In this document: piece by piece, positions 13,232 through 32,208 of the stretch
How positions within the stretch are numbered: position 1 is the first letter of the stretch
How the letters are laid out: the number at the start of each line of letters is the position of its first letter
From: Seonamhaeicola sp. ML3
Lineage (GTDB): Bacteria > Bacteroidota > Bacteroidia > Flavobacteriales > Flavobacteriaceae
Assembly (NCBI RefSeq): GCF_023273855.1
Contig: NZ_CP096884.1
Span: forward strand, 2,666,001-2,730,000
Reading direction: 5' to 3'
DNA length: 64,000 nt
Translations under genes and position numbers: made by a program
The notes under the pieces: generated by a model
What the model was told of the DNA's origin: nothing
The model's input: the letters and a program-made list of their open reading frames with translations, nothing else
The model's database searches: none

Positions 13232-13305
13232 GGTCGCGTAGCTCAGCTGGATAGAGCATCTGCCTTCTAAGCAGACGGTCACAGGTTCGAATCCTGTCGC
13301 GATCA
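13232..13305 (+). tRNA. tRNA-Arg (anticodon UCU)
   Basis: 74-nt cloverleaf. Acceptor GGTCGCG pairs CGCGATC (one G-U), D stem GCTC/GAGC, anticodon stem TCTGC/GCAGA with loop CTTCTAA (anticodon TCT), T stem ACAGG/CCTGT with loop TTCGAAT. No encoded CCA. It is the integration target of the element: its last 20 bp lie in attL. The intact tRNA is kept because the att copy restores the 3' end. Confidence 0.97.
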
Positions 13306-13346
13306 CTTCAATCCTCACTAGTAATAGTGGGGATTTGTTGTTTTTA
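13286..13346 (+). repeat. attL: tRNA-Arg 3' end plus terminator (61-bp direct repeat)
   Basis: 61 bp repeated at 32148-32208 with 3 mismatches. The first 21 bp, the tRNA T-loop to just past the discriminator, are identical and are the probable crossover core. The rest is a hairpin terminator (13310-13335 then TGTTGTTTTT). Similarity to the attR flank stops right before TTCGAAT. Confidence 0.93.
13310..13346 (+). terminator. tRNA-Arg terminator inside attL
   Basis: 11-bp stem (AATCC, one T-G wobble, CACTA against TAGTG, GGATT) with GTAA loop, then TGTTGTTTTT. An almost identical hairpin with a GCAA loop is in attR at 32172-32208. Confidence 0.8.
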
Positions 13347-13446
13347 GAGGGGTTATATATCTTTATAGCTCTTCTGGTAAAATTTCATAATCAATTTACT
13401 ACTAGGTATACGTATGCCTTTTTTAATCAAAATAGGCACACATTAA

Positions 13447-13478
13447 GGTACACCATTTTTCTTTTCGGGTACACCATT
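13447..13478 (+). promoter_or_regulatory. Paired GGTACACCATT repeats upstream of integrase
   Basis: Two perfect 11-bp direct repeats at 13447-13457 and 13468-13478, 21 bp apart (two helical turns), 19 bp before the integrase ATG. A near-palindrome AGGTATACGTATGCCT lies at 13404-13419. Either arm-type integrase sites or an operator; function is inferred from position. Confidence 0.5.
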
Positions 13479-13496
13479 ATTTTAAAACTTAAAAGC

Positions 13497-14705
13497 ATGG
13501 AAATTAGCAAACTAAATATATTGTTCTTGTTACAAAAGAACAGAATTAATAAAGAGGGGAAATGCCCAATAAGGTGTAGAATAACTCATCTGGGCAAGAG
13601 AAAAGTATTCTCTACAGGATTATTCATAAATCCAAAACATTGGAAGAGCAATCAGCAAAGTGCTCACCCACCAGATACCTACTATTACATTAATACACAA
13701 TTAAGCCTGATAAAACAAAAGTTGAATCAGGCTTTTTTGTTTTTACAGGTTAATTATTTAGAGTTTAATGTAATTGATATTTATAGTCACTATCAAGGAA
13801 AACAAACTACTGCGGAAGTTACATTATTGGAAACTTATGACCAGCATAACAATAAGATGAAAAAGTTGATAGGAATTGATTTTAATGAAACTTCTTGGAG
13901 TAGGTATATTGAGAATAAAAGAAAGGTAAAGGCTTATGTAAACAAGGCTTACAAAAAGTCTGATATAAAGTTAAGAGATTTGGATTTGAAGTTTATCAAA
14001 GGCTTAGAATATTATTTTAAAACTGACTTAGGTTTGAGTCAATCTACTATAAATAGGAGCTTGCAAAGAGTACGCAAAATAATAAACTATGCTATATCTG
14101 AAAACCTATTAAATTCAGACCCATTCATAATGTATAAACCAACTAAATACAAACTAAAGTTAACTTATTTAGATGCTCAAGAATTGGCTAGGCTAGAAGA
14201 ACATAAGTTTGCTCAAATTAGGCTAGAACAAGTTAGGGATATGTTTGTGTTTTGTTGTTATACTGGATTAGCTTATGCAGAGATGAATGCATTATCTAGG
14301 GAGCACTTAATAAAAGGATTTGACGGAAATACTTGGATACAGATGTATAGGAAAAAAACAAATAGTCAAGTGTCAGTGCCATTACTTCCAAAAGCTTTGG
14401 ATATTTTGGCTAGGTATAAAGAGGAGCGTGATAATAAAAAGTTACTTCCTTTAATATCTAATCAAAAGCTTAATTCCTATTTAAAAGAAATAGCAGAAGT
14501 TGTTGGTATTGAAAAGAGACTTACACATCACATAGCTAGGAAAACTTTTGCAACTACTATTTTGCTCTATAATGATGTACCAATGGAAATAGTTTCTGAG
14601 CTATTAGGACACTCTAAATTAGAAGTTACACAGAGGCATTATGCAAAGGTTGTTCAAAATAAGGTAAGTGAGGAAATTAACAGATTAAGATTGAAGTTAG
14701 ATTAG
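13497..14705 (+). CDS. Tyrosine recombinase (element integrase)
   Basis: 402-residue site-specific recombinase acting on tRNA-Arg. N-terminal arm-binding region with CPIRCRITHLGKRKVFSTGLFI (residues 23-44), SAM-like core-binding domain about 110-215, catalytic domain about 225-390 with H345-x-x-R348, H372 (LLGHSK) and nucleophile Y382 (RHYAKV). The place of the first catalytic Arg (TGL-x) is Ala259, as in Bacteroidota integrases of the IntDOT type, which also lack it. Start chosen at ATG 13497, where the family N-terminus MEISKLNILFLLQ begins; an upstream in-frame start would lie inside the tRNA terminator. Confidence 0.93.
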   Translation: MEISKLNILFLLQKNRINKEGKCPIRCRITHLGKRKVFSTGLFINPKHWKSNQQSAHPPDTYYYINTQLSLIKQKLNQAFLFLQVNYLEFNVIDIYSHYQGKQTTAEVTLLETYDQHNNKMKKLIGIDFNETSWSRYIENKRKVKAYVNKAYKKSDIKLRDLDLKFIKGLEYYFKTDLGLSQSTINRSLQRVRKIINYAISENLLNSDPFIMYKPTKYKLKLTYLDAQELARLEEHKFAQIRLEQVRDMFVFCCYTGLAYAEMNALSREHLIKGFDGNTWIQMYRKKTNSQVSVPLLPKALDILARYKEERDNKKLLPLISNQKLNSYLKEIAEVVGIEKRLTHHIARKTFATTILLYNDVPMEIVSELLGHSKLEVTQRHYAKVVQNKVSEEINRLRLKLD

Positions 14706-17382: not shown

Positions 17383-17401
17383 AGTGGTATTTACTATTGT
17401 C

Positions 17402-18178: not shown

Positions 18179-18434
18179 AATAATCAATTTATAATTAATA
18201 ATAATTTGATTACACATGAGAACAACACTACACATGCAGAATAACCTAATTAGGTTTTAAAATCAACAGAAACAAAAAGTATTCTTTTAGAAAATAGGAG
18301 AGGAAACTACTCCACTTTATTCGAAGTAACCCAAACTTTGGGTTTTAACTCTGCAAAAATACAAAATTCCTGAGAGTTAAACTAAATATGAACAATTTTA
18401 AATTTTAATATGAATCATTTTAAACAAAATTATT
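18179..18434. promoter_or_regulatory. Divergent intergenic region with palindrome and repeats
   Basis: Between DUF5131 (minus) and the ATPase gene (plus). Holds a 17-bp perfect palindrome AACCCAAA-C-TTTGGGTT at 18328-18344 and a 16-bp imperfect direct repeat, AATATGAACAATTTTA at 18385 and AATATGAATCATTTTA at 18407, 22 bp apart and ending next to the ATPase start. A minus-strand TATTTTTG (18355-18362) could be a -7 box. Confidence 0.45.
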
Positions 18435-19298
18435 ATGCAATTAAGAAAATCAGAAAGAAAAAGAGCCAAGATAAAAATGGCATTACAAGGAAGCGCGGGG
18501 AGTGGTAAGACATATAGTTCTCTTCTTCTAGCAAAAGGACTCATCAATGGAGACTTAACTAAAGTAGCAATTATAGATACTGAGAATGGAAGTGCTGATT
18601 TATATGCTCATTTGGGTAACTATAATGTGCTGTCCTTAACCCCTCCATTCACTCCAGAGCGTTACATTGAAGCTATAGATATATGCCTTAAATCTAAAAT
18701 GGAAGTGATAATTTTAGATGGGGTCAGCCAATGTTGGGATGAACTATTGGATTTTCATTCTAAACTAGCTGGTAATTCCTTTACAAACTGGAATAAGGTT
18801 ACTCCAAGACAAAAAGCATTTATTGATAAGATTTTACAGGCAGATGCTCATATCATAGCTACTATGAGAACTAAACAGGACTATGTGCTTAACCAAAAGG
18901 ATGGAAAGCACGTGCCTGAAAAAGTAGGTTTAAAAGCTGTACAGCGTGATGGGGTAGATTACGAGTTTACTCTGGTATTTGATATAGACTCTAAACACTT
19001 TGCAACTGCCAGTAAGGACAGGACTAACTTGTTTTCTTCTAAACCTGAGTTTAAAATTAATGAAGCAACTGGAAAGAAGATTCTACAGTGGTGTAATCAA
19101 GGAGGAAACATTGATGGTATTAGAGCCCAGATAAATAAATGCAAAGATATAGAGCAACTAAGGCTGCTCTATAATCAATATTACAATATAAAAGAACTGG
19201 AAGAGGATTTCAGATTACAAAAAGAAACTATCCAAGCTAAGGCAGAATTGTTAAACCCTAAAAATTATAGTCAAAATGGAACTTCAGCTCACAAATAG
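18435..19298 (+). CDS. Sak4-like/AAA_24 phage-type ATPase
   Basis: 287 residues, RecA-fold NTPase. Walker A G19-SAGSGK-T26, Walker B VIILD95, a loop with MRTKQDYV (near 155) and FDIDSKHFATASKDR (near 195), layout as in phage nucleotide-binding proteins related to Sak4, which act with single-strand annealing or recombination systems. It starts the plus-strand pair with DUF3871 (overlap 23 bp). Probably cytoplasmic DNA recombination or repair for the element. Specific partner (SSB or annealase) not identified with certainty. Confidence 0.8.
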   Translation: MQLRKSERKRAKIKMALQGSAGSGKTYSSLLLAKGLINGDLTKVAIIDTENGSADLYAHLGNYNVLSLTPPFTPERYIEAIDICLKSKMEVIILDGVSQCWDELLDFHSKLAGNSFTNWNKVTPRQKAFIDKILQADAHIIATMRTKQDYVLNQKDGKHVPEKVGLKAVQRDGVDYEFTLVFDIDSKHFATASKDRTNLFSSKPEFKINEATGKKILQWCNQGGNIDGIRAQINKCKDIEQLRLLYNQYYNIKELEEDFRLQKETIQAKAELLNPKNYSQNGTSAHK

Positions 19299-20337
19299 CC
19301 CCAAATTAGAACTCAAGTCAGTAAAAAGTGCTACCATAATAGGGAACGATAAAAGTGAAAATAATTTAATATATAATAGTAATATTAATAGTAATAATAG
19401 TAGTAATAATATAGTTACTGATAATAGTTCTTTCATAGAGGCTAATACAAAAAGCATTTCACTAAACCATTTACAAAAAGATTGTATAATACCTGTGTTC
19501 AGTAAAGACAATGAAAAAACAATTGCACATCAAGAATTTATTGATGTAGTACATGATTGTACTACCAAGTTGTTTTCACATCATAGTATAGATGAGCCAG
19601 AGATTAGAATTTCACATCAAATCAAGGGTAGAACACCAAGTGCTATACATAAGTCAGCTAAAGACTTGCTAGAACATGAAAAGACTATTTATTATGAGAG
19701 AATGGCATTTATAATTCGTGTACCTAGCATAACTGAAACTATTAATGGAAATGAGTTAGCTTTAACAATAGGAGGGGTACGTGCTTATAACAAGGAGAAT
19801 CTCTATTCTAAAAAGTCAGTAGAGAAGTTTCAAGTGTTTATTGGGTATCAAAATCTCGTATGTTGTAACTTATGTATTAGCACAGATGGAATGGCTTCTG
19901 AAATGCGTGTAGGCAGTACACATGAATTGTCTAGTAAAATAATGGAGCTTATAGAAACGTATGATGCAGATAAACACCTATTACAGATGAGGCAATTAAC
20001 AGAATATAATCTTAGTGAAAAGCAATTTGCTCAGTTAGTGGGTAGGTGTAGGCTCTATGGGTTTTTACCTAAAGAACAGAAAAGAGAAATCCCATCATTG
20101 CTCCTTAATGATGGACAGGTTTCTACTATAGCAAAGGACTATTACCAAGATGAAAGGTTTAGCAAAAACCATGATGGTAAAATAAACTTGTGGAATGTTT
20201 ATAATCTCTTCACATCATCCAATAAGAGTAGTTATATAGACACTTTTAGTGATAGGAATGTAAATACATTTGAGTTTACAAATGGACTTAAAAACACCTT
20301 GGATGGTGATTCTAGCTATTCTTGGTTTTTGAGTTGA
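19276..20337 (+). CDS. DUF3871 family protein
   Basis: 353 residues, a family restricted largely to Bacteroidota mobile elements; function unknown. Conserved block CIIPVFSKDNEKTIAHQEF near residue 70-90, SHQIKGRTPSAIHK, LLEHEKTIYYERMAF, GGVRAYNKENLYSKK. The N-terminus (about residues 28-52) is an N/S-rich low-complexity stretch encoded by AAT/AGT triplet repeats and holds copy 2 of the element repeat at 19331-19342. Overlaps the ATPase gene by 23 bp, so they are co-translated. A role in element replication or recombination is guilt by association. Confidence 0.85.
   Translation: MELQLTNSPKLELKSVKSATIIGNDKSENNLIYNSNINSNNSSNNIVTDNSSFIEANTKSISLNHLQKDCIIPVFSKDNEKTIAHQEFIDVVHDCTTKLFSHHSIDEPEIRISHQIKGRTPSAIHKSAKDLLEHEKTIYYERMAFIIRVPSITETINGNELALTIGGVRAYNKENLYSKKSVEKFQVFIGYQNLVCCNLCISTDGMASEMRVGSTHELSSKIMELIETYDADKHLLQMRQLTEYNLSEKQFAQLVGRCRLYGFLPKEQKREIPSLLLNDGQVSTIAKDYYQDERFSKNHDGKINLWNVYNLFTSSNKSSYIDTFSDRNVNTFEFTNGLKNTLDGDSSYSWFLS
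19331..19342 (+). repeat. Element repeat CTACCATAATAG, copy 2
   Basis: Same 12-mer as 15770 and reverse of 30285; this one lies inside the DUF3871 reading frame, in its variable N-terminus. Confidence 0.5.
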
Positions 20338-20342
20338 AGAAT

Positions 20343-20425
20343 GCCCAGCCTCTTATATAGAGGGGTTGGGTTATTTTTTATTTTACCCAATAAAAAAACT
20401 CAGAGCAAGTCTGAGTTTTATTTTT
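20343..20425. terminator. Two tandem hairpins between convergent genes
   Basis: First hairpin CCCAGCCTC / GAGGGGTTGGG followed by TTATTTTTTATTTT (serves DUF3871). Second AAAACTCAGA / TCTGAGTTTT, T-rich on both sides, serves both DUF3871 and the Abi gene. Confidence 0.8.
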
Positions 20426-20493
20426 TATTCTTTTTAAGTGCAGAAACTAAAGCATAAATGAATAGCAGTGCACTAGTGCAAAGATACAAAAAG

Positions 20494-21393
20494 TTATTGA
20501 TACTTTATTTTCTCCTTAATTATTTTTTCAATAACAGCATTTTTAGAGTTTTCTTTAAATATAGTTTCTATATCATTAATAAAGTCTTTTTCTCTATTTT
20601 CAGAAATATGTTTTAAAAAATAAGCTATTACCTTCAAGCATGCATTAAGGGAGTTTCTATCACTATTTACAAAATCTATACCAGGAATAACAGATAGACC
20701 TCTAGGGGTATTAAAATCATATAGAACATCACCATGAGAACATATGTTACGTATTAGAACAACTGCACTCATTAGGTTTTCAAACTTGTCTATGTTTAAA
20801 ATCCCCATACTTTCAGTTACTCGCTTTTTAATGTCAGTATCTTTTATGTTTTTAAATAAATTCAATAGAACACCAAAAGTAAAAAACTCTAAGACTTTCC
20901 ATGCAGGTGCATAGGTGTCTTGAGGGTTGTTTTGATGATGTTTTTTTAAGGTTTTATTGTTGTTAATAAATTCAGGAGTATAAACCCTGTTAAGCATACT
21001 CGTTTTAAAAGGGGTGCTTTGTATGAAGCTATTATTTACTATAGCATCATCAGCAAACCAAGCAGGGAAGTCTTTGAATTTATTGGATACGTAATAAATC
21101 ACTTTAGTTCTAAAATGAATCTCTATTCTATTAAGGTATTTTAATAATATATTACGCAAATCAACATCTAAATAGTATAACCCAATAACATCAGAAAGCT
21201 TGCTGTCTGGAGCAAAATTATGGTCATCATCTATTTCAAAATGATGCCAATAAAATCCTAATCTATAGTAGCCTATATCTAATAAAAACTCCTTGACTTT
21301 GGCTTCTGGAAAATCAAGAGTAAGACCTCTGCCAGATAATATTTGTATTTGCTTGTTTGTGTTTGTTGCCTTATTTCCCATGCTATAATTCAA
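20494..21393 (-). CDS. Abi_2 (AbiD/AbiF-type) abortive infection protein
   Basis: 299 residues. The Abi_2 family is a HEPN-fold group known from lactococcal phage resistance. Family marks: LLDIGYYRLGFYWHHFE (38-54), YYLDVDLRNILLKYLNRIEIHFRTKV (73-98), YAPAWKVLEFFTFGVLLNLF (161-180), and the catalytic-type R215-N-I-C-S-H220. Last gene of the seven-gene defence operon. It overlaps the DUF262 gene by 11 bp, so it depends on translation of the operon. Expected action is RNA cleavage causing growth arrest on infection (inference from HEPN). Confidence 0.9.
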   Translation of the reverse strand: MNYSMGNKATNTNKQIQILSGRGLTLDFPEAKVKEFLLDIGYYRLGFYWHHFEIDDDHNFAPDSKLSDVIGLYYLDVDLRNILLKYLNRIEIHFRTKVIYYVSNKFKDFPAWFADDAIVNNSFIQSTPFKTSMLNRVYTPEFINNNKTLKKHHQNNPQDTYAPAWKVLEFFTFGVLLNLFKNIKDTDIKKRVTESMGILNIDKFENLMSAVVLIRNICSHGDVLYDFNTPRGLSVIPGIDFVNSDRNSLNACLKVIAYFLKHISENREKDFINDIETIFKENSKNAVIEKIIKEKIKYQ

Positions 21394-23170
21394 ATATTTC
21401 TAAAGCTTTAGAGACTAAAGTTTCTGTTCTATTCTGTATGTGTTCTTTTTTCCAAATTGGAGTGTTCTTTAGTATTTCATTTAATACTAAACCGTTGTTA
21501 AAACCAATATTATTGCCTTTTTTATCTTTTTTGTTCTGCTTGTCTAATAGAGGCATATCACTTAATTGAGAATTATATCCTGTTAAGGTAAGATTGCCTA
21601 GTTTGTGAACATAATTTTCCCTAATCTCGTTAGCTAATTCTTTATTTCCATTAGCAACCATTTGTACCCAATGAGGTTTCATGTTTTTACCTTGTGGTAA
21701 AGCGTGTTCTATAGTCCAAACAAATTTATTCTTACTTCTTTCATAAAAGTTTTTATAGCCTTCTCTTTCACTATTTTGAGCCAGTTCTAAACTTGATAAA
21801 ATATATCTAGTGGCACCTACGTTTTCTTCATACAGGTTACCATTTAATTTTTGTTTGAATACTTCATCAGAAGCAGGTTTTCCATACTGAATGAGTATAG
21901 CTTTTACCTCTTCATAGCTATAGTTTTCTAAACTATCAACATGCTCAATTATATCCATGAAGTAGTTGGTTAAGTCTCTAGTAGGAGGACTATCAGTAAC
22001 ATTTCTTCTTATAAAGTACCTACATAACAAATTGATTAAATCAATCTTTTGATTCTCTGATATTTCAAATTTGTGCTCTATGAATAGGAGTAGCATATAA
22101 GCATCTGCACCATTTACATTTTCAAGGTTTCTTAAAGCTCTAGTAATTTCAGTGGAACTATCATCATTTTCATATTGTATATTTTGAGAATAAATAATGG
22201 AAGCACTTTCTAGTCTGTCAAAAATCTTAGAAACATCTCTATTTATAAGCTCTTCAAAAATACCAATAAGATTAGACCTTAATGCTTTGGGTTTTTTATT
22301 GACCTTGATAGCTTCCTCTAACCTAAAAGCATTGTAGAACTGTCTAATAAATCTTTCCTGAATTTTGTAGTTATCTGTTAAGTTAGCCAGGATACCATTC
22401 CATCTATCAAAATTATCATCTATAGTTTCTATTCCTTTTTTTTCTAAAGCCCCTAATAACTTGTTTTTAATGAGGTCTATTGCAGATAATGGAACACCTC
22501 TATTGTTTAGTGTTTCAAAAAGGGTAAAGGCACCATCATGAGTAGTTACATCTATTTTAACCAAAATAGAACTATTTAATTTGTCTAGAAAGTTTTTTGC
22601 TGATTGATAGGTATAAGCTGGATATTCATTTTCATCTAATTGATATAGCCTATCTACAAAATAATTGAAAGCTCTACTTATTTGTCTATTCCCAATATAC
22701 TTTGGTGCTTTTAAGGTTCTTATTTCTTCAATGTTTTTTGAAAAAATATAATTATAATCCTCAAAGTTGTTATTGGTATATGAAGGTTCTAGTCTTGGCT
22801 TATTAGTACTCTCTAACAGTATTCTATTTTTTAAATTCCAAAGAGCAAACATTTCTTTTTGCTGATTTTCTGGTAAATGGTCTGATAAGAATTTATAAAC
22901 AGCTAAATATAAAAGGCTAATTGTTGTCATTCTTTGTTGTCCATCAACTAGTTCAAATTTAGCATCCTCCATAGCATCATTCTCTGTGTTAATGCAGATG
23001 ATAGAACCTAAAAAGTGATTGCCTTCACTCTCTTCAATATCATCAAATAGAGCTTCCCAATTGTCTTTTTTCCAGATATATTCTCTTTGGTATTTAGGTA
23101 TGTGGTATGTTATTTTATGTTCTCCACTGAATAGCTGAGATAATGACTTGTCTTTAGTTTCTTGAATCAT
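21383..23170 (-). CDS. DUF262/DUF1524 GmrSD-like nuclease
   Basis: 595 residues. N-terminal DUF262: IPKYQREYIWKKDNW (24-38), GSIIC, LVDGQQRMTT with D76-GQQ-R80 as in ParB/DndB-type NTP-binding folds. C-terminal DUF1524 HNH-like nuclease about 487-535: IEHALPQ (H489), HKLGNLTLTGYNSQLSD. Single-chain fusion of GmrS-like and GmrD-like halves; GmrSD enzymes restrict phages with modified (glucosylated) DNA. Its place just downstream of a type III system suggests complementary protection against phages whose bases escape normal cutting. Overlaps the upstream 130-residue gene by 17 bp. Confidence 0.9.
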   Translation of the reverse strand: MIQETKDKSLSQLFSGEHKITYHIPKYQREYIWKKDNWEALFDDIEESEGNHFLGSIICINTENDAMEDAKFELVDGQQRMTTISLLYLAVYKFLSDHLPENQQKEMFALWNLKNRILLESTNKPRLEPSYTNNNFEDYNYIFSKNIEEIRTLKAPKYIGNRQISRAFNYFVDRLYQLDENEYPAYTYQSAKNFLDKLNSSILVKIDVTTHDGAFTLFETLNNRGVPLSAIDLIKNKLLGALEKKGIETIDDNFDRWNGILANLTDNYKIQERFIRQFYNAFRLEEAIKVNKKPKALRSNLIGIFEELINRDVSKIFDRLESASIIYSQNIQYENDDSSTEITRALRNLENVNGADAYMLLLFIEHKFEISENQKIDLINLLCRYFIRRNVTDSPPTRDLTNYFMDIIEHVDSLENYSYEEVKAILIQYGKPASDEVFKQKLNGNLYEENVGATRYILSSLELAQNSEREGYKNFYERSKNKFVWTIEHALPQGKNMKPHWVQMVANGNKELANEIRENYVHKLGNLTLTGYNSQLSDMPLLDKQNKKDKKGNNIGFNNGLVLNEILKNTPIWKKEHIQNRTETLVSKALEIFEL

Positions 23171-23546
23171 TCTTAGTAATACTGTTTTTAAGTTCTTCTA
23201 CTTCCATTTCTAAAACATTTGCCCATTGGTAGTAATTAATATGTTCATCAATGATATTAACATACTCTTCCAATAGAGCAAGTGCAATAAATTTATATTC
23301 TGGATGCACAAAAAGAGGATATAAACTGAATACATTATTGTACTCTCTTTGCATTTTTATAAAGGCTTCTGCTATAGACATTGAGTGTTTAGACTTCTTG
23401 TTGATACCTTCAAGCTCTAAATCTTCATAAGCCATTTCACTAACTGAATGGTAGTACCAATCCTCATTTTTTTTATCAATATATTTGTATAAAGTTATAG
23501 AGCCACCTTCAGCACCTATTTCTATAATTCTGGTGTGGTTTTTCAT
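23154..23546 (-). CDS. Unknown protein in defence operon (130 aa)
   Basis: Not recognised. 130 residues, no signal or membrane segment. The N-terminus IIEIGAEGGSITLYKYIDKKNEDWYYHSVS looks like beta strands; the C-terminal half (about 58-128) is helical (SIAEAFIKMQREYNNVF, ALLEEYVNIIDEHINYY). Translationally coupled on both sides: start codon overlaps the stop of the 208-residue gene (ATGA, 4 bp) and its end overlaps the DUF262 gene by 17 bp. This tight coupling suggests that it works with one of them. Confidence 0.7.
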   Translation of the reverse strand: MKNHTRIIEIGAEGGSITLYKYIDKKNEDWYYHSVSEMAYEDLELEGINKKSKHSMSIAEAFIKMQREYNNVFSLYPLFVHPEYKFIALALLEEYVNIIDEHINYYQWANVLEMEVEELKNSITKNDSRN

Positions 23547-24169
23547 TCTTGTAAATCTTCAAAGTCATCAAAGACTATTTCTTTAATATTTCTATAATTA
23601 AGATTATTAAGCTTTAATCCTTCATAGTTAGAAATAAAAGTCAACCCCTTACTAATCATATCATTTTTTATATCACTATAAGATACTCCATCCCATACTT
23701 TGCATTCTAAATATTCAGATAACTTATCACAAGCATTATCAGCTAGATAAATAATTTCAGTACCACCAAAAACAGAAATTATATCATAAATGTTTTTCCT
23801 AAATTCTATAAGTGACTTTGGGTTAGACCTATTATAAAGATAGCTATACCTGTAAATGGTAGATATATCAAGGCAGTTTTCATATACACCAATTTGGAAA
23901 ACAAATGGACTATCAAAGTTTATTATTTCTTTGTTATCATGGTCTACTTCAAAAATATTTGTAATGTGATTATACTTTTTGGGTAATTGGTATTCCCAAT
24001 CACCATCAGACCTCACATATTTTTTAATTACACCATTGCTGTAATATGTAGGTATTAAAGTATGCTCTAGATTTAGAGATTGTAATTGCTCTAAGTAAAT
24101 ATCTTTTTTGGTTATTATTTCCACTTTAGGAATTAGTGTATTACTAATAGCATGTAGTGCTGTACCCAT
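23543..24169 (-). CDS. Unknown protein in defence operon (208 aa)
   Basis: Not recognised. 208 residues, mixed alpha/beta, no signal peptide. Visible marks: N-terminal helix with MGTALHAISNTLIP, a YQLPKKYNHITNIFEVDHD segment (63-81), an FGGTEIIYLADNACDKLSEYLE stretch near 133-154 and a WDGVSYSDIKNDM turn. Lies 4 bp after the res gene and overlaps the next gene by 4 bp. No catalytic motif can be named. It could be an immunity or adaptor partner of the following nuclease; this is only inference from gene order. Confidence 0.7.
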   Translation of the reverse strand: MGTALHAISNTLIPKVEIITKKDIYLEQLQSLNLEHTLIPTYYSNGVIKKYVRSDGDWEYQLPKKYNHITNIFEVDHDNKEIINFDSPFVFQIGVYENCLDISTIYRYSYLYNRSNPKSLIEFRKNIYDIISVFGGTEIIYLADNACDKLSEYLECKVWDGVSYSDIKNDMISKGLTFISNYEGLKLNNLNYRNIKEIVFDDFEDLQE

Positions 24170-24173
24170 ATAA

Positions 24174-26855
24174 CTATAACCCTCTTAAAACTTCAATTAC
24201 ACTTTTAGCTGTATAGGTGTTTTCTACTTGTTTAGTTTCAAAAACCATAAAATATTTATAATTATCTCCCGCTTTTTCAGCCCAAGTTTTACCTAGAATA
24301 TTTTTGTTTTTACTATCATCATTATCATATACATCTCCTTTTGTTTCTAGCAAGATGATGTTGCCTTTTTTGGTATAAAGTATGAAATCTGGATAGTGAT
24401 TAGAGCTAAAACCATTTAATGCAAATCCTTTTCCTCTTTCAAGGTTTCTATGCCAGAATACTACATTTTCAAGTGAAGCAACTTCTAGTATCATTTTTTG
24501 CTCATAATTATTCATACTAGCTTCTCTGTCATATAGAGACTTGCTAATGGTAGTACTAGGATTTAAAAATGATAAGGTTTCTGGAAAAGCAAAATTTTCT
24601 TTTACCACAATTTTATTACTATCAATACCTATTTTAAAACGTTCTTTTGCATATTCATTAGTTATTTCATTTATCTTGTCTTTAATCTTCTTAACATAGA
24701 TAAAATCATTGTCAACAATATCCCTAATCTGTTCAGCAGAAAGATTATCAAAAACCCTACTTACATATTTTTGTAGTTCTTGTTGAGATATTGGTGTCAT
24801 ATCTCCAAGCTTAGATACAATGATGCTACTAATTTGATTAACCTGTGATTCTTTTGGTTTAGATAAAATGGTGTCTACTAAAATGTCTTTAGCTCTTTTA
24901 CTTACCTTTTGTGCAGTAGCAGTCCTTTTTTGCTCATTAAAATCTACAGCATAAATCTCTTTAGAAATATCATCAAATGTAATTTGTGTACTGTAATTAG
25001 ATAGTTTAAAACCATCTAATAAACTTATCTTGTTTAAGTATTGGTCTTCTGAGTTTAATTCTTCAAATAAACTTACTTCCTCTAACTCACTTTCTTCTAC
25101 TTTTTTAAAGAACTGTGGTAATTTTATAGTACTAGCTATCTCTTTAAATTGACCATCTAGCTTATAAATTTTGGGTGCAGTTTTCATAATATCTGTAAAA
25201 ATTGAAGTAGTATCATCAATCTCTATTTCATTAACTTTCTGCTCAAAAGTTTGTCCTTCAACTTTTGCTTTTTCTGTTATTTGAGATACTAGTGGGTTTT
25301 GTTGGTTAATGGTTTCTATGGTTACTTCATCATTTGGATTAAATTCAATGGCATTTAAATCAAAATCTTCATCAGATTTTACATAGTTATCTGTTTGAGG
25401 TTCTTGAGCAAATAAATCTTGGGTAAGTATTTCATTTGGAGTTAATTCTTCTTCTGGAGCCTCTTCAGCATAATAATCATCTTTACTAAATCCAGATTCT
25501 TGTAAACCTTTAACAATACTATCTAGTGTTTCATTAAACTTTGATGAGGCTGTTAATACAAAAGACATATTAAGCAATGCCTCTTTATGTTTAACTACAT
25601 ATGGTTGTCTTAAAACCCTACCTAAAATTTGTTCTACTTCTACAGCAGAAGATTTATCTGCAAGTGAGGCTAATATGTAAGCATTAGGGCAATCCCAACC
25701 CTCTTTTAAAGCATTTACTGTTATAATGTATTTAACAGGGCAGTCTTTAGCCATAAGGTCTATACCTTTAAGCTCATCTATTCCACTAGTCTTTATTTTT
25801 ATTTGTTCTTCAGGAATTTGAAGTTTTACTAACTGCTCTTTTATTTTTTGAAATGTAGTATTGTTTTTACCCTTAATATTAGACTGTGCTTGGAATAATA
25901 TGATGGGTCTTATGTATTTTCCTGTAGCTTTTTCTTCCTCAATAGCTAAAAGTTCTAATTGCCTTTGTAAGTGTAAAGCACTTGTAATAACCTCTTCTTT
26001 TTTATGATGATTATACACTACTACAGGTAGTTTCACCATATTTTCTTTTTTAAGAGCTAGGGCATTTACAAAGGAAATAATATTACTGTTTTCTTTAGGT
26101 GTAGCTGTTAAATCTAATACTAAAGATGGATTTAAGTTATTTAGCATTTCAACACTTAAATCACTTTCTGCATTGTGGCTTTCATCTACAATTACAATAG
26201 GGTTTAGGCTTCTAATAACATTAATTAAAGCAGTTTCATCTGTGTCAGGTAATACTAAGTCTCTATCTACAATAGTGTTTCTAAAAGACTCTAAAGCACC
26301 ATTTTCTTGAAACACTTTCCTATCATCTTTCTTTCTAGAATTAATACGTAAACTACTAAAGTTAAATACAAAGATGTTCAATTGTTCTGTTACAGAGGTA
26401 GGGTTAAAATTAGCACCTTGTAATAATTGGTCCTTTTCATAAACTTCAACTCTGTTGCCAAACAAACTATTTAGTTTCTCTCTATATGGATGGTTAGGAT
26501 TTGATAAGTTTTTTACAGTTTGTTGTAACAGATTAGACCAAGGTACTAGCCAAACTACAGCTTTAGTGTTTCCTTGATTAAAATGCTTATTTATAGTGTG
26601 CAACGCATTACAAGCTATAAAGGTTTTACCACCCGCAGTAGGTACTTTTACTGCTATATGAACTGCATTAGGTATATTATCTTTGTAAGGTTTCATACCT
26701 TCAAAAGAACCATCTAACTGTGGTGTATAAGGCATACCCAATTTATCTTCCCAATATTGGTTAAATGCTTTTGCAGAAGTAGGCTCTTTTTGTACATAAG
26801 ACAAAAAATGTTCTAAATCTTTAATTACTCTATGTTGGTATGGTTTTAATTCCAT
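24174..26855 (-). CDS. Type III restriction enzyme, Res subunit
   Basis: 893 residues, ATP-dependent translocating endonuclease acting with Mod. SF2 helicase motifs: Walker A P72-TAGGK-T78, D224-E-S-H227 (motif II), DLTATP (248-253), GWDCPNAYILASLAD, EQILGRVLRQPY (motif VI). C-terminal PD-(D/E)xK nuclease YPD823FILY, then LLE837-T-K839. Complete. Eleven bp after mod. Cuts between two inversely oriented unmethylated sites in known type III systems. Length is on the short side for Res but all domains are present. Confidence 0.95.
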   Translation of the reverse strand: MELKPYQHRVIKDLEHFLSYVQKEPTSAKAFNQYWEDKLGMPYTPQLDGSFEGMKPYKDNIPNAVHIAVKVPTAGGKTFIACNALHTINKHFNQGNTKAVVWLVPWSNLLQQTVKNLSNPNHPYREKLNSLFGNRVEVYEKDQLLQGANFNPTSVTEQLNIFVFNFSSLRINSRKKDDRKVFQENGALESFRNTIVDRDLVLPDTDETALINVIRSLNPIVIVDESHNAESDLSVEMLNNLNPSLVLDLTATPKENSNIISFVNALALKKENMVKLPVVVYNHHKKEEVITSALHLQRQLELLAIEEEKATGKYIRPIILFQAQSNIKGKNNTTFQKIKEQLVKLQIPEEQIKIKTSGIDELKGIDLMAKDCPVKYIITVNALKEGWDCPNAYILASLADKSSAVEVEQILGRVLRQPYVVKHKEALLNMSFVLTASSKFNETLDSIVKGLQESGFSKDDYYAEEAPEEELTPNEILTQDLFAQEPQTDNYVKSDEDFDLNAIEFNPNDEVTIETINQQNPLVSQITEKAKVEGQTFEQKVNEIEIDDTTSIFTDIMKTAPKIYKLDGQFKEIASTIKLPQFFKKVEESELEEVSLFEELNSEDQYLNKISLLDGFKLSNYSTQITFDDISKEIYAVDFNEQKRTATAQKVSKRAKDILVDTILSKPKESQVNQISSIIVSKLGDMTPISQQELQKYVSRVFDNLSAEQIRDIVDNDFIYVKKIKDKINEITNEYAKERFKIGIDSNKIVVKENFAFPETLSFLNPSTTISKSLYDREASMNNYEQKMILEVASLENVVFWHRNLERGKGFALNGFSSNHYPDFILYTKKGNIILLETKGDVYDNDDSKNKNILGKTWAEKAGDNYKYFMVFETKQVENTYTAKSVIEVLRGL

Positions 26856-26866
26856 TTAGGTATATC

Positions 26867-28477
26867 TTAAAATCGTGTAATATCTCTTGGTATTTTTTTA
26901 AATACAATATTGTACTTATCCATAATAGCTTGGTCTAGTAAGCAATTATCTGCATAAATTATATATTGACTAGCTTTGGTTTTTATAGACCTTAAAAAGC
27001 TTTCATCTAGTGTAGTTAAGTTGTCTTTTTGATAATAGAAATAATAGGCTGAATCATTTTTAGCACCTAGTAAATAATTTTCTTCTGGATTGCTAAAAGG
27101 TTCTTTAGTTTCTGTGTACCACACATATTCTAATATTTTGGATAAACCAATGGCTTCATTTAAAAAACCATTTTCTAAAAATAAAGGCTTTCCAAGTACA
27201 TAATAGGTAAAATCTCCTCCTGTACCTTCAGTAGCTTTAGAACCTTCTCCATACCCCTTAATAACTCTCTTTACTCTTTCGGCAGTAATGGTATTGGCAT
27301 AATCTTCCATTTCCACTAAAATGAATTTTCTATTACCACCATCTTGTTTGTTAAGATTGAAAACTGCATGTGCAGTAGTTCCAGAACCTGCAAAGGAATC
27401 AAGAATATAACAATCCTTTGAATGTTCTGTAGAAGCCATTAACAAATATTGAATTAGAGTTGATGGCTTTGGGTAATTAAAAGCTTTTTCTCCAAAAATT
27501 TCTTGCATCTCTTTTGTGCCATCTTGAGACATACCAACTTCCTTTGGGAGATTGGTACTCATAGCTTGAAAACCAAATGATTTACCTGCCTTTTTCATGT
27601 CATCCTTTTTAAAGTATCTGAAGGCAGGTTTAGAAATATTTAAAAATTCATAATCATCTGGAAATACTATTCTATTGTTATCATAGTAACCTTTAAATGT
27701 ATCTTTAGAAATTGCCCACGTCCTATTTTTTTGAGCAGGATATTCTTTTCCTGTTTTTGGGTCTATTATTGTGAAGTAACTATTTGGTCTTTCTTCAGCA
27801 CTTGTTTGTTTTGTTAAATCATGGATTCTCCATGGCTCATTAGGCAAATCTGGTGTTTCATAGTATTTCCTTTCTTTGGCTTTGACATAAGCTTTAAAGT
27901 CACTTCCTTTAGAGTATAAGAGAATTGATTCATAATCTTGTGAAACTCCATTTGGGACATCAGATTTTGCTGTTCTTTTTCTCCATGGAATTAATCCTAC
28001 ATACTTATTTACCCCAAAAATCTCATCACAAAGTAGTTTCAGATTAGCTTGTTCATTATCATCAATACTAATAAAGATAGCTCCATCATCAGCCAACAGT
28101 TTATGTAATAACTTTAATCTAGGATACATCATACACAGCCATTTATCATGCCTTGATAAATCTTCACTTTCTTTACCAACTACTTGTCCTAACCATTTTT
28201 TAAGTTTTGGGTGGTTTACATTGTCATTATACACCCAACCCTCATTACCTGTATTATAAGGTGGGTCTATGTAAATGCATTTTATTTTACCTTCATATTC
28301 TGGCAGTAGGCTTTTTAGGGCTTCTAGGTTATCACCATGTATTATTTTATTTTCAGAAGGAGTGTTTTTATCTTCTTTACCATTACTAAAAGTGTATTGT
28401 GGCTCTAGAATTTTATAAGGTACATCTTGATGATGGTTAATTACTTTTTCTTTTCCTATCCAGTTGAGTGTTGGCAT
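26867..28477 (-). CDS. Type III DNA methyltransferase, Mod subunit
   Basis: 536 residues, adenine-N6 (beta class) methyltransferase giving both specificity and protection. Motif IV DPPYNTGNEGW (71-81) precedes motif I FAGSGTTAH (362-370), the beta-class order. The variable region about 170-310 is the target-recognition domain. Starts 4 bp after the XRE gene and ends 11 bp before res. No phase-variable tract is evident in the coding region. Recognition sequence cannot be read from the protein. Confidence 0.95.
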   Translation of the reverse strand: MPTLNWIGKEKVINHHQDVPYKILEPQYTFSNGKEDKNTPSENKIIHGDNLEALKSLLPEYEGKIKCIYIDPPYNTGNEGWVYNDNVNHPKLKKWLGQVVGKESEDLSRHDKWLCMMYPRLKLLHKLLADDGAIFISIDDNEQANLKLLCDEIFGVNKYVGLIPWRKRTAKSDVPNGVSQDYESILLYSKGSDFKAYVKAKERKYYETPDLPNEPWRIHDLTKQTSAEERPNSYFTIIDPKTGKEYPAQKNRTWAISKDTFKGYYDNNRIVFPDDYEFLNISKPAFRYFKKDDMKKAGKSFGFQAMSTNLPKEVGMSQDGTKEMQEIFGEKAFNYPKPSTLIQYLLMASTEHSKDCYILDSFAGSGTTAHAVFNLNKQDGGNRKFILVEMEDYANTITAERVKRVIKGYGEGSKATEGTGGDFTYYVLGKPLFLENGFLNEAIGLSKILEYVWYTETKEPFSNPEENYLLGAKNDSAYYFYYQKDNLTTLDESFLRSIKTKASQYIIYADNCLLDQAIMDKYNIVFKKIPRDITRF

Positions 28478-28481
28478 ACAG

Positions 28482-28775
28482 TTAGTTGTTTTCTTCTGTT
28501 TTTATTCTTTTTAAGGCTAGTTTAATGGCATCTATAGCAACATTTTCTCCTTGTACATCTTCATATACTTTTTCACTTAGCCATAGGGTTAATAGCTTGT
28601 TGTAATCTATGTCTAAAGCTAAAGCTAGTTTCTCTATTTGTTCTCTTGTAGGTTTTCTATCTCCTTTTTCAATTTTACTTATTAAAGCAGTATCAACATC
28701 TACTTTATAAGCAACCTCTCTAAGCAACATGCCTTTAGCTTCCCTCTTAAATTTTATTAATTCTGATAGTGTCAT
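28482..28775 (-). CDS. XRE-family controller protein of the R-M operon
   Basis: 97 residues. HTH in residues 4-58 (IKFKREAKGMLLREVAYKVDVDTALISKIEKGDRKPT). First gene of the operon, 4 bp before mod, the position of C (controller) proteins of restriction-modification systems that delay Res relative to Mod on entry. TTGTCA and TGACAA half-sites upstream (around 28796 and 28830) could be its operator, which is weakly supported. Confidence 0.85.
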   Translation of the reverse strand: MTLSELIKFKREAKGMLLREVAYKVDVDTALISKIEKGDRKPTREQIEKLALALDIDYNKLLTLWLSEKVYEDVQGENVAIDAIKLALKRIKTEENN

Positions 28776-29276
28776 TAGTAGTCAAATTTCAACTTGTCAA
28801 AAGATGTCTAAAACTAATCTAATTTTCTGACAAAAAAAATTTTTGAAAAGAAAAAAATTAACAACTATTCTGTGTGTACTGCATACCTTGAGAAATACCC
28901 CTAGCTAGTTTAGGTTTTACAAACTCCCCACCCCAATCTGACAGAGAATTTTCTTTTTGAAGCAGTTTATAAAAAGATTGATTTTAAGGACTTTTTTCTT
29001 TTTTACAATTTATATCATTAACAAATCATCCTACCAGTCTGTAGACTGAATTTGTAACTAAAAAAATTAAGATATTTATTGACTTTAGTAAGTAATCCAA
29101 CCCCTCACTCAGACCTGAATAAACAGTCCTCACTAAATACCCTCACCAATTTGTGCAAATGAATCCCATTTGTGCCTAAAAGTATTTTAATAGTATAACA
29201 TTCAAGGTGATAGTTGCAATGATATCTTATTGGGATAGTTAGTTAGGTTATTTCCCAACTCAAAAATCAATTTATT
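28776..29276. other. 500-bp non-coding region with short repeats
   Basis: No gene seen. Contains a 6-2-6 inverted repeat CAGTCTGTAGACTG (29035-29048), CCTCAC three times (29103, 29128, 29141), ATTTGTGC twice (29149, 29168), and A/T tracts. It is the longest gene-free stretch of the element. It must hold the divergent promoters and is a candidate origin or transfer site for the element; neither is demonstrated. Confidence 0.45.
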
Positions 29277-29672
29277 ATGGTTAGAATAATTGGCTACAAA
29301 TCAAGAGAAAAAGAGGATGGAAGTCCATTCTTTATTTTAGAACTACAAGGAGGTGTAGAAATGTCATTAAGTAAGACAGGGCAATACTACGCTACAGCTA
29401 AAAAGGCTTATGTTACAAGTACATTTGATGAGCCTACTTGTAAAGCACTAATAGGAACTGAAATACCAGGGGCTATTGTAAAGAAAGAAGTTGAACCTTA
29501 CACTTATGTTGTAAAGGAAACAGGAGAAGAACTTGTCTTAACTCATAGGTGGGTTTTTGTTCCAGAACCTCAAGAGGAAACTAAACAAGAAGAAGCTGTA
29601 AATCAACTTATGGCAGATACTTCTGTATTCTCTCAAAATGGAGTTTCTGATTTAGCTGAACAGGCTATTTAG
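29277..29672 (+). CDS. Conserved Bacteroidota mobile-element protein
   Basis: 131 residues, no named family recalled. N-terminal beta-rich segment (IIGYKSREKEDGSPFFILELQGGVEMS), then KTGQYYATAKKAYVTSTFDEPTCKALIGTEIPG, acidic tail EPQEETKQEE. Size and layout suggest an OB-fold or other small nucleic-acid-binding protein, but no motif proves it. Proteins with this pattern often precede RadC/JAB genes on Bacteroidota elements, as here. Followed by a long hairpin terminator. Confidence 0.65.
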   Translation: MVRIIGYKSREKEDGSPFFILELQGGVEMSLSKTGQYYATAKKAYVTSTFDEPTCKALIGTEIPGAIVKKEVEPYTYVVKETGEELVLTHRWVFVPEPQEETKQEEAVNQLMADTSVFSQNGVSDLAEQAI

Positions 29673-29681
29673 TAATTAATA

Positions 29682-29738
29682 AAAAATGTCCAGAACCCGT
29701 ATGTATATATTATATGTATGTCAAAACTGGACATTTTT
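29682..29738 (+). terminator. Long hairpin with 12-bp perfect arms
   Basis: AAAAATGTCCAG (29682-29693) and CTGGACATTTTT (29727-29738); the 33-nt loop holds a further TA palindrome. The T run after the second arm makes it a terminator of the preceding gene, with the RadC gene reading on behind it. Confidence 0.7.
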
Positions 29739-29809
29739 ACTTTTTCGTGATTTGGTATTTCTACTATAGGGGTGTTACACCAGATTACGAAAAACTTAAT
29801 GTTTTAATT

Positions 29810-30244
29810 ATGGAGATTTCAGAAATAAAAGTGTCTTATTTAAACAGTAGTACTAGTAAAGTAAAGATAGCCAATAGTAAAAATGTTTATGAAACAGTAT
29901 TATCTTGTTGGGATTTAGAAACTATAGAATACCAAGAAGTGGTTAAATTATTATTACTCAATAGAGCTAATGTAGTGCTAGGTATTAATGAGCTATCAAA
30001 AGGTGGTACATCAGCTTGTATGGTAGATATTAAAATGGTTTTAGCAATAGCTTTGAAATGCAATGCACACGGAATAATCCTTATACATAATCATCCAAGT
30101 GGTAATTTAGAACCTAGTGAGGCAGATAAGAGCTTAACATCAAAGATTAAAGAAGCTTGTAAAATAGTTGATATTAATATGCTGGACCATTTGATTATTT
30201 CAAAAGATGGATATTATAGTTTTAGTGATAACAGTACTTTATAA
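29810..30244 (+). CDS. RadC-like JAB-domain protein
   Basis: 144 residues from ATG 29810 (MEISEIKVSY). An upstream in-frame start at 29714 would lie in the terminator hairpin. JAMM/MPN-type metal motif H93-N-H95-P-S-x6-D106, with E-x-S-K-G near 61-65. RadC/YeeS-type proteins are frequent on plasmids and islands; their function in DNA processing is unsettled. The N-terminal HhH of chromosomal RadC is absent, as usual for element copies. Confidence 0.88.
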   Translation: MEISEIKVSYLNSSTSKVKIANSKNVYETVLSCWDLETIEYQEVVKLLLLNRANVVLGINELSKGGTSACMVDIKMVLAIALKCNAHGIILIHNHPSGNLEPSEADKSLTSKIKEACKIVDINMLDHLIISKDGYYSFSDNSTL

Positions 30245-30284
30245 CTACTAAATATATTTACTATTTTATATATTATATATATCT

Positions 30285-30296
30285 CTATTATGGTAG
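30285..30296 (-). repeat. Element repeat CTACCATAATAG, copy 3 (reverse)
   Basis: Reverse complement of the 12-mer at 15770 and 19331, preceded on the plus strand by a TATATATTATA tract, so the order repeat then TA tract is kept. In the 265-bp gap between RadC and the XRE gene, in which nothing else is recognised. Confidence 0.5.
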
Positions 30297-30509
30297 CAAT
30301 TTTTGTGATTATGTAAGTATGTGGTTATTAAAAATTAACCTAAATATCAATTTATTATTCAAATGCAAAAAAATCTTTACATATTAATATAGCCAAAATG
30401 AGTTCAAGTTATTGATTGGAATGTTGGAAAGAATAGGGAATAGAACAAATCTCTTTATTAGTCTAGGAAAATAGGGTTATTTGCTGCGAGAACTGCCTAA
30501 TAGCTAAAA

Positions 30510-30740
30510 CTAACTATTAATATTATCAAACTTTAAAAGTTGATACACCTCAACTTCTAAGTGTTGTGCAATTTTATAAAGAGTATAGCTAGATGGACAA
30601 GTATTACCCATTTCAATTCTACTCATATTTGACCTTTCAAATTCACATAGGTTGGCTAATTCAACCTGAGATATTTTCTTTTCCTCTCTAAGTTGCTTTA
30701 TTCTTTTGCCAATAAAAATTTGAAATTCCTTTTTGGTCAA
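30510..30740 (-). CDS. XRE-family repressor
   Basis: 76 residues, almost only a Cro/C1 HTH (IKQLREEKKISQVELANLCEFERSNMSRIEMGNTCPS, residues 13-49). Starts at a TTG (30740); there is an in-frame stop two codons upstream, so no ATG start is possible. Divergent from a three-gene membrane-protein cassette. The intergenic region holds two perfect palindromes, 30747-30758 and 30788-30805, probably its operators. Confidence 0.82.
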   Translation of the reverse strand: MTKKEFQIFIGKRIKQLREEKKISQVELANLCEFERSNMSRIEMGNTCPSSYTLYKIAQHLEVEVYQLLKFDNINS

Positions 30741-30746
30741 ACCTTA

Positions 30747-30805
30747 GTTATTAATAACCAAAAGTTGTAATAATCTTAAATTATGTTGCTATCAATTTTG
30801 ATAGC
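30747..30805. promoter_or_regulatory. Putative operator pair of the XRE repressor
   Basis: GTTATTAATAAC (30747-30758, 12-bp perfect palindrome) next to the XRE start, and GCTATCAATTTTGATAGC (30788-30805, 18-bp perfect palindrome) toward the divergent cassette. Confidence 0.6.
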
Positions 30806-30855
30806 GAACTATATTTTTTAATCTTTATTCAATAATTTTTAAAACCAGATAAACA

Positions 30856-31026
30856 ATGAACGTCTTAAAAAAAATAGGGTTAAGTTTTTTAGTTATAATC
30901 TTAGCAATACTAATACAGGGTTTGTTAAGCCAAACAGGAGGGACTAAATCAGCAGGGATAAGATTAATACCTGGAGGTTTAATGATACTGGGGTTAATAC
31001 TCGTATGGACTAGAAAAAAGAAATGA
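30856..31026 (+). CDS. Small two-helix membrane protein
   Basis: 56 residues. Sequence shows MNVLKKIGLSFLVIILAILIQ (first hydrophobic segment, residues 8-24) and GGLMILGLILVW (second, 40-51), ending RKKK. First gene of the cassette divergent from the XRE repressor, 1 bp before the next gene. Function unknown; such proteins may be pore-like effectors or anchors, which is only conjecture. Confidence 0.65.
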   Translation: MNVLKKIGLSFLVIILAILIQGLLSQTGGTKSAGIRLIPGGLMILGLILVWTRKKK

Positions 31027-31027
31027 T

Positions 31028-31860: not shown

Positions 31861-32147
31861 TGAAGGTATATTGAGACTAAACTTTGCAAATAACTACATA
31901 TTTATATGTCTAGCACAATAACATAAATAAAGGATTAACTACAACTAGTATAGACTAGAATATTAATGATGTGGTGTTGAGTAGAGTATTGCTAAAGGAG
32001 ATAATTATTCCCAGAGTGTACTGTTTTTTATACTTGGTAGCACTAAAGTTAGAATATCAGATTGAGCTTAGATAGGCACACTTCTAGGCATACATGTTTT
32101 GTAATTAGTTTATGAAGTATTGGTATTCTTTATAAAAATAAGAAAGC
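31861..32147. other. Element right-end non-coding region
   Basis: 287 bp between the last cassette gene and attR; AT-rich, no gene, tRNA or strong repeat recognised. Confidence 0.5.
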
Positions 32148-32208
32148 TTCGAATCCTGTCGCGATCACCACAATCCTCACTAGCAATAGTGGGGATTTGT
32201 TGTTTTTA
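32148..32208 (+). repeat. attR: partial tRNA-Arg 3' end plus terminator
   Basis: Matches attL 58/61. The first 21 bp are identical; differences are TTC versus CAC just after the tRNA end and one base in the hairpin loop. Not a functional tRNA because only the 3' 20 bp are present. Confidence 0.93.

What the first reader, a model, noticed from the sequence alone, without database searches (positions are those of the whole stretch)
20494..28775. Seven-gene defence operon: XRE, Mod, Res, two unknowns, GmrSD-like, Abi_2
All genes on one strand with gaps of at most 11 bp or overlaps. Three mechanistic layers (type III restriction, modified-DNA restriction, abortive RNase) share one controller. The two unknown proteins (208 and 130 aa) are translationally coupled between Res and GmrSD-like nuclease, which suggests a joint function.
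Basis: partly seen in the sequence, partly recalled or inferred. Interest (0 to 1): 0.85.

Follow-up and report, generated by a model that had tools for sequence, protein, structure and literature searches.

The report
Restriction operon ending in RNA-guarded toxin
A bacterium of the family Flavobacteriaceae carries, on a mobile DNA island, a restriction operon against phage to which further defence genes have been added, the last being a likely RNA-cutting suicide protein that seems to be kept in check by a small RNA made from its own promoter.

Summary
Three things change the picture. (1) They are cargo of an 18.9-kb element in tRNA-Arg: integrase beside the tRNA, 21-bp repeat of the tRNA end at 32148-32168, empty site in 4 of 6 congeners. 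(2) They are not one fixed system: U208 follows Res in 3 of 12 Res loci, once without U130, GmrSD-like and Abi_2 genes, so U208 goes with Res and the U208/U130 pair is not obligatory. The hairpin stands beside this Abi_2 subfamily in 16 loci and in none of 24 distant Abi_2 loci; its inner helix covaries; no Rfam family claims it. Abi_2 is related to the solved AbiF toxin 8vz6, which is held by an RNA antitoxin. Best reading: type III restriction operon, plus GmrSD-like nuclease, plus an AbiF-like RNA-protein toxin-antitoxin captured at its tail. New variant of a known kind.

The parts
13232..13306 (+). tRNA-Arg(TCT); its last 21 bases (13286-13306) are the left attachment repeat
   Evidence: ARAGORN; exact 21-bp repeat
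13335..14705 (+). tyrosine-type integrase beside the tRNA (Phage_integrase, SAM-like and arm-binding domains)
   Evidence: Pfam; relatives on L001, L020, L021
18435..20337 (+). island backbone: AAA_24 ATPase and DUF3871 gene
   Evidence: Pfam; relatives in L001, L021, L026
28482..28775 (-). XRE-type HTH regulator, 97 aa
   Evidence: HTH_3
26867..28477 (-). Mod, type III methyltransferase; middle (specificity) region exchanged between relatives
   Evidence: N part 92%, middle 28%, C part 85% identity to L001
24174..26855 (-). Res, type III helicase-nuclease with DESH and PD-x-ExK-like motifs
23543..24169 (-). U208, Res-linked protein of unknown fold; variable N half, conserved C half
23154..23546 (-). 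U130, small protein with GAEGGSI signature, inherited with the DUF262 gene
21383..23170 (-). DUF262/DUF1524 GmrSD-family protein (QR, DGQQR, FxxLN, HALP, LGNLTL motifs present)
20494..21381 (-). Abi_2 (AbiD/F) protein with HEPN R-x4-H motif; likely start ATG 21381
20479..20486 (-). promoter-like TATCTTTG (TAnnTTTG type) for the small RNA
20388..20478 (-). predicted small RNA (about 90 nt), candidate antitoxin RNA of Abi_2: hairpin 20475-20431, terminator 20419-20395
29277..30244 (+). island backbone: 131-aa gene of unknown function and RadC-family gene
32148..32168 (+). right attachment repeat, identical 21-bp copy of the tRNA-Arg 3' end

Best explanation
A tRNA-Arg integrative island carries a type III restriction-modification operon (XRE-Mod-Res) that has gained modules behind Res: U208, then U130 with a GmrSD-family modification-dependent nuclease, then an AbiF-like toxin. 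Mod methylates host sites and Res with Mod cuts unmethylated DNA; the GmrSD-like enzyme would attack DNA whose modified bases defeat type III restriction; Abi_2 is the last layer. Shown by sequence: gene order, domains, motifs, module breakpoints, the island, and a conserved structured RNA with its own promoter-like element and terminator beside this Abi_2 subfamily. Inferred: this RNA is the antitoxin that binds Abi_2 and blocks its HEPN RNase, as in the AbiF-AbiFr pair. The toxin message comes from the restriction operon (its ATG is 1 bp after the DUF262 stop) while the RNA comes from its own promoter, so a phage that stops host transcription or degrades the RNA would free the toxin. U208 is most likely an accessory subunit or sensor working with Res; U130 a small partner of the GmrSD-like protein (both weakly supported).
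For: Domains and motifs. Abi_2 matches 8vz6 over residues 5-261 at 1.3e-25; 8vz6 is the PbAbiF-ncRNA complex (PMC12737573, figure legend seen in passages). RNA: TAnnTTTG, hairpin and terminator after Abi_2 in 7 of 7 closest matches of the family search; the hairpin in 0 of the 18 distant ones; also in L069 and in 8 of 9 viral-contig loci, 4 downstream and 4 upstream of Abi_2. TAnnTTTG stands 4-12 nt before the hairpin in 12 of 13 loci, about 39 in L085. Covariation: 24 cells changed on both sides against 12.7 +/- 2.7, 0 of 500 shuffles as high; RNAalifold predicts the same two helices. Model R1: 16 distinct loci at E <= 7.1e-4 in 511,315 bases, all beside Abi_2, one place in the whole window; L086 was neither in training nor a near-copy. 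Module ends: similarity stops at the end of Res in L018 and L020 and at the end of U208 in L019. Island.
Against: No expression or binding data. The hairpins were cut out by eye from AGTG to CACT, so the invariant outer helix is partly by choice; only the inner helix is an independent sign. The inner part folds better than 95% of shuffles in 5 of 13 sequences, all from viral contigs; in the 8 others, the window included (42%), it does not. One covariation measure is weaker (8 pairs against 6.3 +/- 0.9, 40 of 500). 44 of the 61 sources searched with R1 were Abi_2 loci, so 'all beside Abi_2' is partly the sampling. No TTG stands 18-23 bases before the TAnnTTTG in the window. No Rfam RF03085 match. 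8vz6 is nearer the distant Abi_2 group (147.7 bits for L065 against 93.5 for the window and 87.6 for L043), so the antitoxin role is by analogy. In 4 of 6 other genomes no restriction gene was seen by the pair, so its place in the operon may be chance capture. No operon promoter was identified.
Confidence: 0.68

Rival explanations
1. An ordinary cargo region: independent defence genes sit head to tail by chance capture, with no functional coupling; the RNA and Abi_2 are a selfish addiction pair that stabilises the island.
For: Modules come and go independently; in 4 of 6 other genomes no restriction gene was seen by the Abi_2-RNA pair; backbone genes of the island lie by other cargo in L020, L021 and L026.
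Against: The full order with overlaps recurs in L001 with Res 92% and DUF262 94% identical, while backbone genes are 57-68% identical, as if the block is kept together or moves as a block. In 2 of 6 other genomes the pair is near restriction genes (L097 type III Mod-Res; L092 a type IIG-like gene about 4 kb away).
Confidence: 0.35
2. One reading: U208 and U130 form one functional unit with the GmrSD-like nuclease (for example a two- or three-protein modification sensor, as TgvA is for TgvB).
For: U208 and U130 overlap by 4 bp and U130 and DUF262 by 17 bp; both loci with close U130 have U208 and DUF262; in TgvAB both genes are needed (PMC11411939, passages).
Against: L019 has Res-U208 without U130 or DUF262; L034 has U208 without a restriction gene among the neighbours read; neither protein matches DUF262 as TgvA does.
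Confidence: 0.2
3. The conserved RNA is only the 3' end and terminator of the Abi_2 message, not a separate antitoxin RNA.
For: It lies on the same strand right after the stop codon in the Flavobacteriaceae loci, ending in a terminator.
Against: The same hairpin lies upstream of Abi_2 in L082, L083, L085 and L086, behind the same promoter-like element, and the element stands 4-12 nt before the hairpin in 12 of 13 loci.
Confidence: 0.12

Closest known systems
AbiF-AbiFr RNA-protein toxin-antitoxin (PbAbiF, PDB 8vz6; AbiF-RCd22 of Clostridioides difficile, PMC12373285)
   Same: Abi_2/AbiD/F protein with R-x4-H motif; a small structured RNA with its own terminator next to the gene
   Different: The RNA does not match RF03085, follows the toxin gene here, and the toxin gene is the tail of a restriction operon; by sequence 8vz6 is nearer the distant Abi_2 group
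TgvAB inside a type I restriction operon of VPI-2 (PMC11411939); GmrSD-like HEC-05/HEC-06 embedded in other defence clusters (named there)
   Same: GmrSD-family nuclease embedded in a restriction operon
   Different: Type III host operon; single-protein GmrSD-like enzyme; U130 and U208 do not match DUF262; Abi_2-RNA appended
EcoP15I-type (type III) restriction-modification
   Same: Mod and Res pair with matching domains; Mod matches the solved EcoP15I Mod
   Different: Added accessory genes; Res has no sequence-level PDB match at E 0.001
PrrC with type Ic restriction (described in PMC3710099)
   Same: HEPN RNase as a second layer tied to a restriction system
   Different: PrrC is held by the restriction complex itself; here an RNA is the likely inhibitor

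Membership tests
Type III restriction-modification | adjacent Mod (N6/N4 methylase) and Res (helicase plus PD-ExK nuclease) | tested here: met
Type III restriction-modification | methylation and ATP-dependent cleavage at paired sites | not testable with these tools
   needs methylome data and enzyme assay
GmrSD-family type IV enzyme | DUF262 with QR, DGQQR, FxxxN and DUF1524 with catalytic H and N residues | tested here: met
   motif list from PMC11411939 passages
GmrSD-family type IV enzyme | cuts DNA with modified bases only | not testable with these tools
   -
AbiF/AbiFr (type III toxin-antitoxin) | Abi_2 protein with R-x4-H, related to 8vz6 | tested here: met
AbiF/AbiFr (type III toxin-antitoxin) | structured RNA gene next to the toxin gene | tested here: met
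   (sequence evidence only, no transcript)
AbiF/AbiFr (type III toxin-antitoxin) | RNA belongs to Rfam RF03085 (abiF RNA) | tested here: not met
   no RF03085 match: window (E up to 1; E up to 10); L001; L042-L048 (E up to 10); L069, L078, L079, L081, L082, L083, L085 (gathering score only); L086 (E up to 2)
AbiF/AbiFr (type III toxin-antitoxin) | RNA binds and neutralises the toxin | not testable with these tools
   -
tRNA-integrating genomic island | integrase beside tRNA, direct repeats, empty site in relatives | tested here: met

The most novel reading that the evidence does not exclude
The hairpin RNA is a new family of antitoxin RNA for a Bacteroidota Abi_2 subfamily, and the capture of this pair at the tail of a type III restriction operon makes a tripwire: the operon supplies the toxin, the separate promoter supplies the RNA, and U208/U130 tie toxin release to the state of Res or the GmrSD-like enzyme, so that a phage which defeats both DNA-cutting layers kills the cell.
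Probability: 0.2. Interest if true: 0.78.

Novelty: new variant of a known kind. Interest (0 to 1): 0.52.

Why it matters
It gives a concrete, small and testable case of how restriction operons grow by adding modules, and it names a conserved RNA, not in Rfam, beside a class of RNase toxins from which Cas13 nucleases are thought to descend (PMC12165695, PMC12737573, passages). The RNA can be tested directly: does it neutralise Abi_2? It also corrects the idea that all layers share one regulator.

Tried and rejected
Rejected: U208/U130 as a fixed pair (L019). Rejected: U208 N-half tracking the Mod specificity region; L001 and L019 share the U208 N-half (92%) but not the Mod middle (47%). Rejected as chance: the U208 profile hit in G522 (E 4.3e-5, 77 positions inside a 432-aa ORF of what looks like a cas locus, L036, by eye), and the four weak U130 hits (E 7.3e-4 to 8.2e-3; not examined further). 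Sigma-70 consensus sites: 43 found, 47.3 expected. TAnnTTTG: 9 on the minus strand of 9 kb, 6.7 expected, and none with a TTG 18-23 bases before it, so the element alone proves nothing. No U208 or U130 relative in viral contigs or plasmids; phages searched with U130 only. Distant Abi_2 genes carry a different upstream CACGC...GCGT motif (11 of 18 in the family set, 6 of 6 of L071-L076, 0 of the RNA-bearing loci tested, a loose pattern without chance control); not pursued. No structure of U208 or U130 could be predicted.
Full report
Observation. The seven ORFs are present on the minus strand from 28775 to 20494, with gaps of 4, 11 and 4 bp and overlaps of 4 and 17 bp. Abi_2 has a listed TTG start at 21393, but relatives L043, L044 and L046 begin at the residue that matches the ATG at 21381, one base after the DUF262 stop. 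Mod matches solved type III Mod proteins (6k0w, EcoP15I 4zcf), the DUF262 protein matches DUF262 entries and SspE, Abi_2 matches 8vz6. Motifs DPPY and FAGSGTT (Mod), DESH and PD-x-ExK (Res), QREYIW, DGQQR, FETLN, HALP and LGNLTL (DUF262 protein) and RNICSH (Abi_2) are present; that these are the catalytic motifs is recalled for Mod, Res and HEPN, and taken from PMC11411939 passages for DUF262.

Surroundings. tRNA-Arg lies at 13232-13306 with a phage-type integrase at 13335-14705 (Phage_integrase 1.3e-14). Its last 21 bases recur exactly at 32148-32168. In 4 of 6 congeneric genomes the sequence to the right of the second copy follows the tRNA directly (L098, L100 and L101 by about 40 bases beyond the repeat, L104 by 1.5 kb); in the other two (L099, L103) only the 21 bases match. 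The island is 30.5% G+C against about 35% on both sides. Backbone genes (DUF3871, AAA_24, the 131-aa gene, RadC) recur all four in L001 and, in part and by other cargo, in L020, L021 and L026.

Modularity. A search with Res in 249 family genomes gave 12 places in 11 genomes at E 1e-100 or better; I read the neighbours of all 12. U208 is next to Res in 3 of 12 (window, L001 of Algibacter pacificus, L019), U130 in 2, Abi_2 in 2, a DUF262 gene in 3 (one of them, L026, only 27% identical). Genes lie between Mod and Res in some: a 277-aa protein with RNKIAH in L001 (HEPN-like by recall; no Pfam or PADLOC hit), RhuM in L019, YhcG/DUF1016 in L022. DNA similarity to the window stops at the end of Res in L018 and L020 and at the end of U208 in L019. 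Against L001, Res is 92%, DUF262 94%, U130 83%, XRE 78%, U208 56% and Abi_2 48% identical, backbone genes 57-68%. So additions sit between Mod and Res and behind Res, and U208 goes with Res rather than with U130. The survey used protein similarity of ORFs of 60 aa or more and can miss diverged copies.

The unknown proteins. U208: 1 relative among 57 candidate stretches of the genome collection (L001); only the window's own genome of 148 relatives; 4 of 345 genomes of the phylum sample: the window's genome, a full-length relative near Fic and AAA_21-RloB genes (L034), a partial one near a TIR gene (L035), and one hit that I reject (L036). U130: 2 of 148, the second a remnant with stops after a type I HsdR gene in L005; 2 of 345, the second as the end of a 277-aa protein with a P-loop-like start (L037; only a weak RsgA match). 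They do occur near defence genes, but too rarely to fix a function.

The eighth part. After the Abi_2 stop codon the window reads TATCTTTG, then a hairpin with AGTGCA/TGCACT arms, then a terminator. L001 has the same. Of 25 Abi_2 matches in 249 family genomes, the 7 closest (38-100% identity) all have TAnnTTTG 6-43 nt after the stop, then the hairpin and a terminator; the 18 distant ones do not have the hairpin (two of them have a lone TAnnTTTG). For one of the 7 (L047) the table lists a TAA inside the match, though a 292-aa ORF is open there. A phylum search added L069, with the RNA, and L071-L076, without. Of 9 viral-contig loci, 4 carry the RNA downstream and 4 upstream of Abi_2 (L079 and L080 share one sequence, as do L082 and L083); L084, where the gene runs off the contig, shows none. 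The 13 hairpins were cut by eye from AGTG to CACT, so the invariant outer helix is partly a matter of choice. Aligned without structure information, they give in RNAalifold a 4-bp outer and a 6-bp inner helix. Counting 13 pairs that I named after looking at single folds: 81.4% of cells pair against 69.7 +/- 2.4 in shuffles, 24 cells changed on both sides against 12.7 +/- 2.7 (0 of 500 for both), pairs with such a change 8 against 6.3 +/- 0.9 (40 of 500); sliding the strands lowers every measure. The sequences are related, so these counts are not probabilities. Folded alone, the inner part beats 95% of shuffles in 5 of 13 sequences, all viral-contig ones, and not in the 8 others, the window's among them. 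A covariance model found 16 distinct loci at E 7.1e-4 or better in 511,315 bases, all beside Abi_2; the next hit is E 0.66. 17 of the 61 sources (the whole window among them) were not fetched for Abi_2. L086 was outside the training set and is no near-copy of a trained row. Three plasmid Abi_2 loci (26-31% identity; 3 of 4 hits fetched) had none. Rfam shows no RF03085 match (window E up to 10; L042-L048 E up to 10; 20 further loci at gathering score; L086 E up to 2).

Mechanism. AbiF in Clostridioides difficile is toxic and is neutralised by a small RNA (PMC12373285, abstract and passages). 8vz6 is the Prevotellaceae AbiF with its RNA, which blocks its RNase (PMC12737573, passages). The window's Abi_2 is a relative (93.5 bits), although a distant Abi_2 of the same genome is nearer (147.7 bits over 228 aa). 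With a conserved RNA at its side, an RNA-protein toxin-antitoxin is the best reading; binding is inferred. I read larger neighbourhoods of 6 other genomes: in L093-L096 no restriction gene was seen (family searches on 5 neighbours: YidC, MFS, thioesterase, transposase, no match); L097 has another type III pair beside it and L092 a type IIG-like gene about 4 kb away. The window thus shows a mostly free-standing pair captured at the end of a restriction operon, where the toxin start sits 1 bp behind the DUF262 stop. HEPN proteins embedded in restriction operons are a known theme, with PrrC as model (PMC3710099, passages), and a GmrSD-family pair embedded in a type I operon has been shown to act against phage (TgvAB, PMC11411939, passages). 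The closest plasmid relative of the DUF262 protein (39.7%) lies in a stretch with PglX and PglZ genes, so this enzyme type travels between defence systems.

Novelty. In searches of open papers (listings, with passages seen in PMC11411939, PMC3710099, PMC12373285, PMC12165695 and PMC12737573) I saw no report of this combination or of this RNA. The library lacks most subscription papers; the AbiF-to-Cas13 study itself was seen only as a citation, so the RNA may be described there.

Verdict. A real and well-formed defence operon, best described as modular. The new point is the RNA. Function of U208 and U130 stays open; I commit, weakly, to a Res accessory and a GmrSD-like partner.

Noticed in passing
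L071-L076 and 11 of L049-L066, upstream of Abi_2: Distant Abi_2 genes carry another motif (CACGC...GCGT, in several followed by ACCAGGG and a terminator-like stretch) upstream; no Rfam match in the loci searched.
   Followed up: partly
window 13307-32168: tRNA-Arg island whose backbone genes (DUF3871, AAA_24, 131-aa gene, RadC) lie by different cargo in relatives: a likely cargo hotspot.
   Followed up: partly
window 17402-18235: Radical-SAM-like gene on the island (rSAM_mob_pairA 2.5e-19, below cut-off; PADLOC candidate PDC-M41B 1.4e-56).
   Followed up: no
L001:4472-5305: 277-aa protein with RNKIAH between Mod and Res, HEPN-like by eye, without Pfam or PADLOC match.
   Followed up: partly
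L093 and L095: Abi_2-RNA pairs of two genera lie near the same genes (a thioesterase-like gene, 4HBT in L095, and a carB-like gene, name recalled): possible shared insertion spot.
   Followed up: no
G000:C1:3121628-3122473 (L065/L077): The same genome has a second, distant Abi_2 gene with the other upstream motif; it is nearer to 8vz6 than the window's Abi_2.
   Followed up: partly
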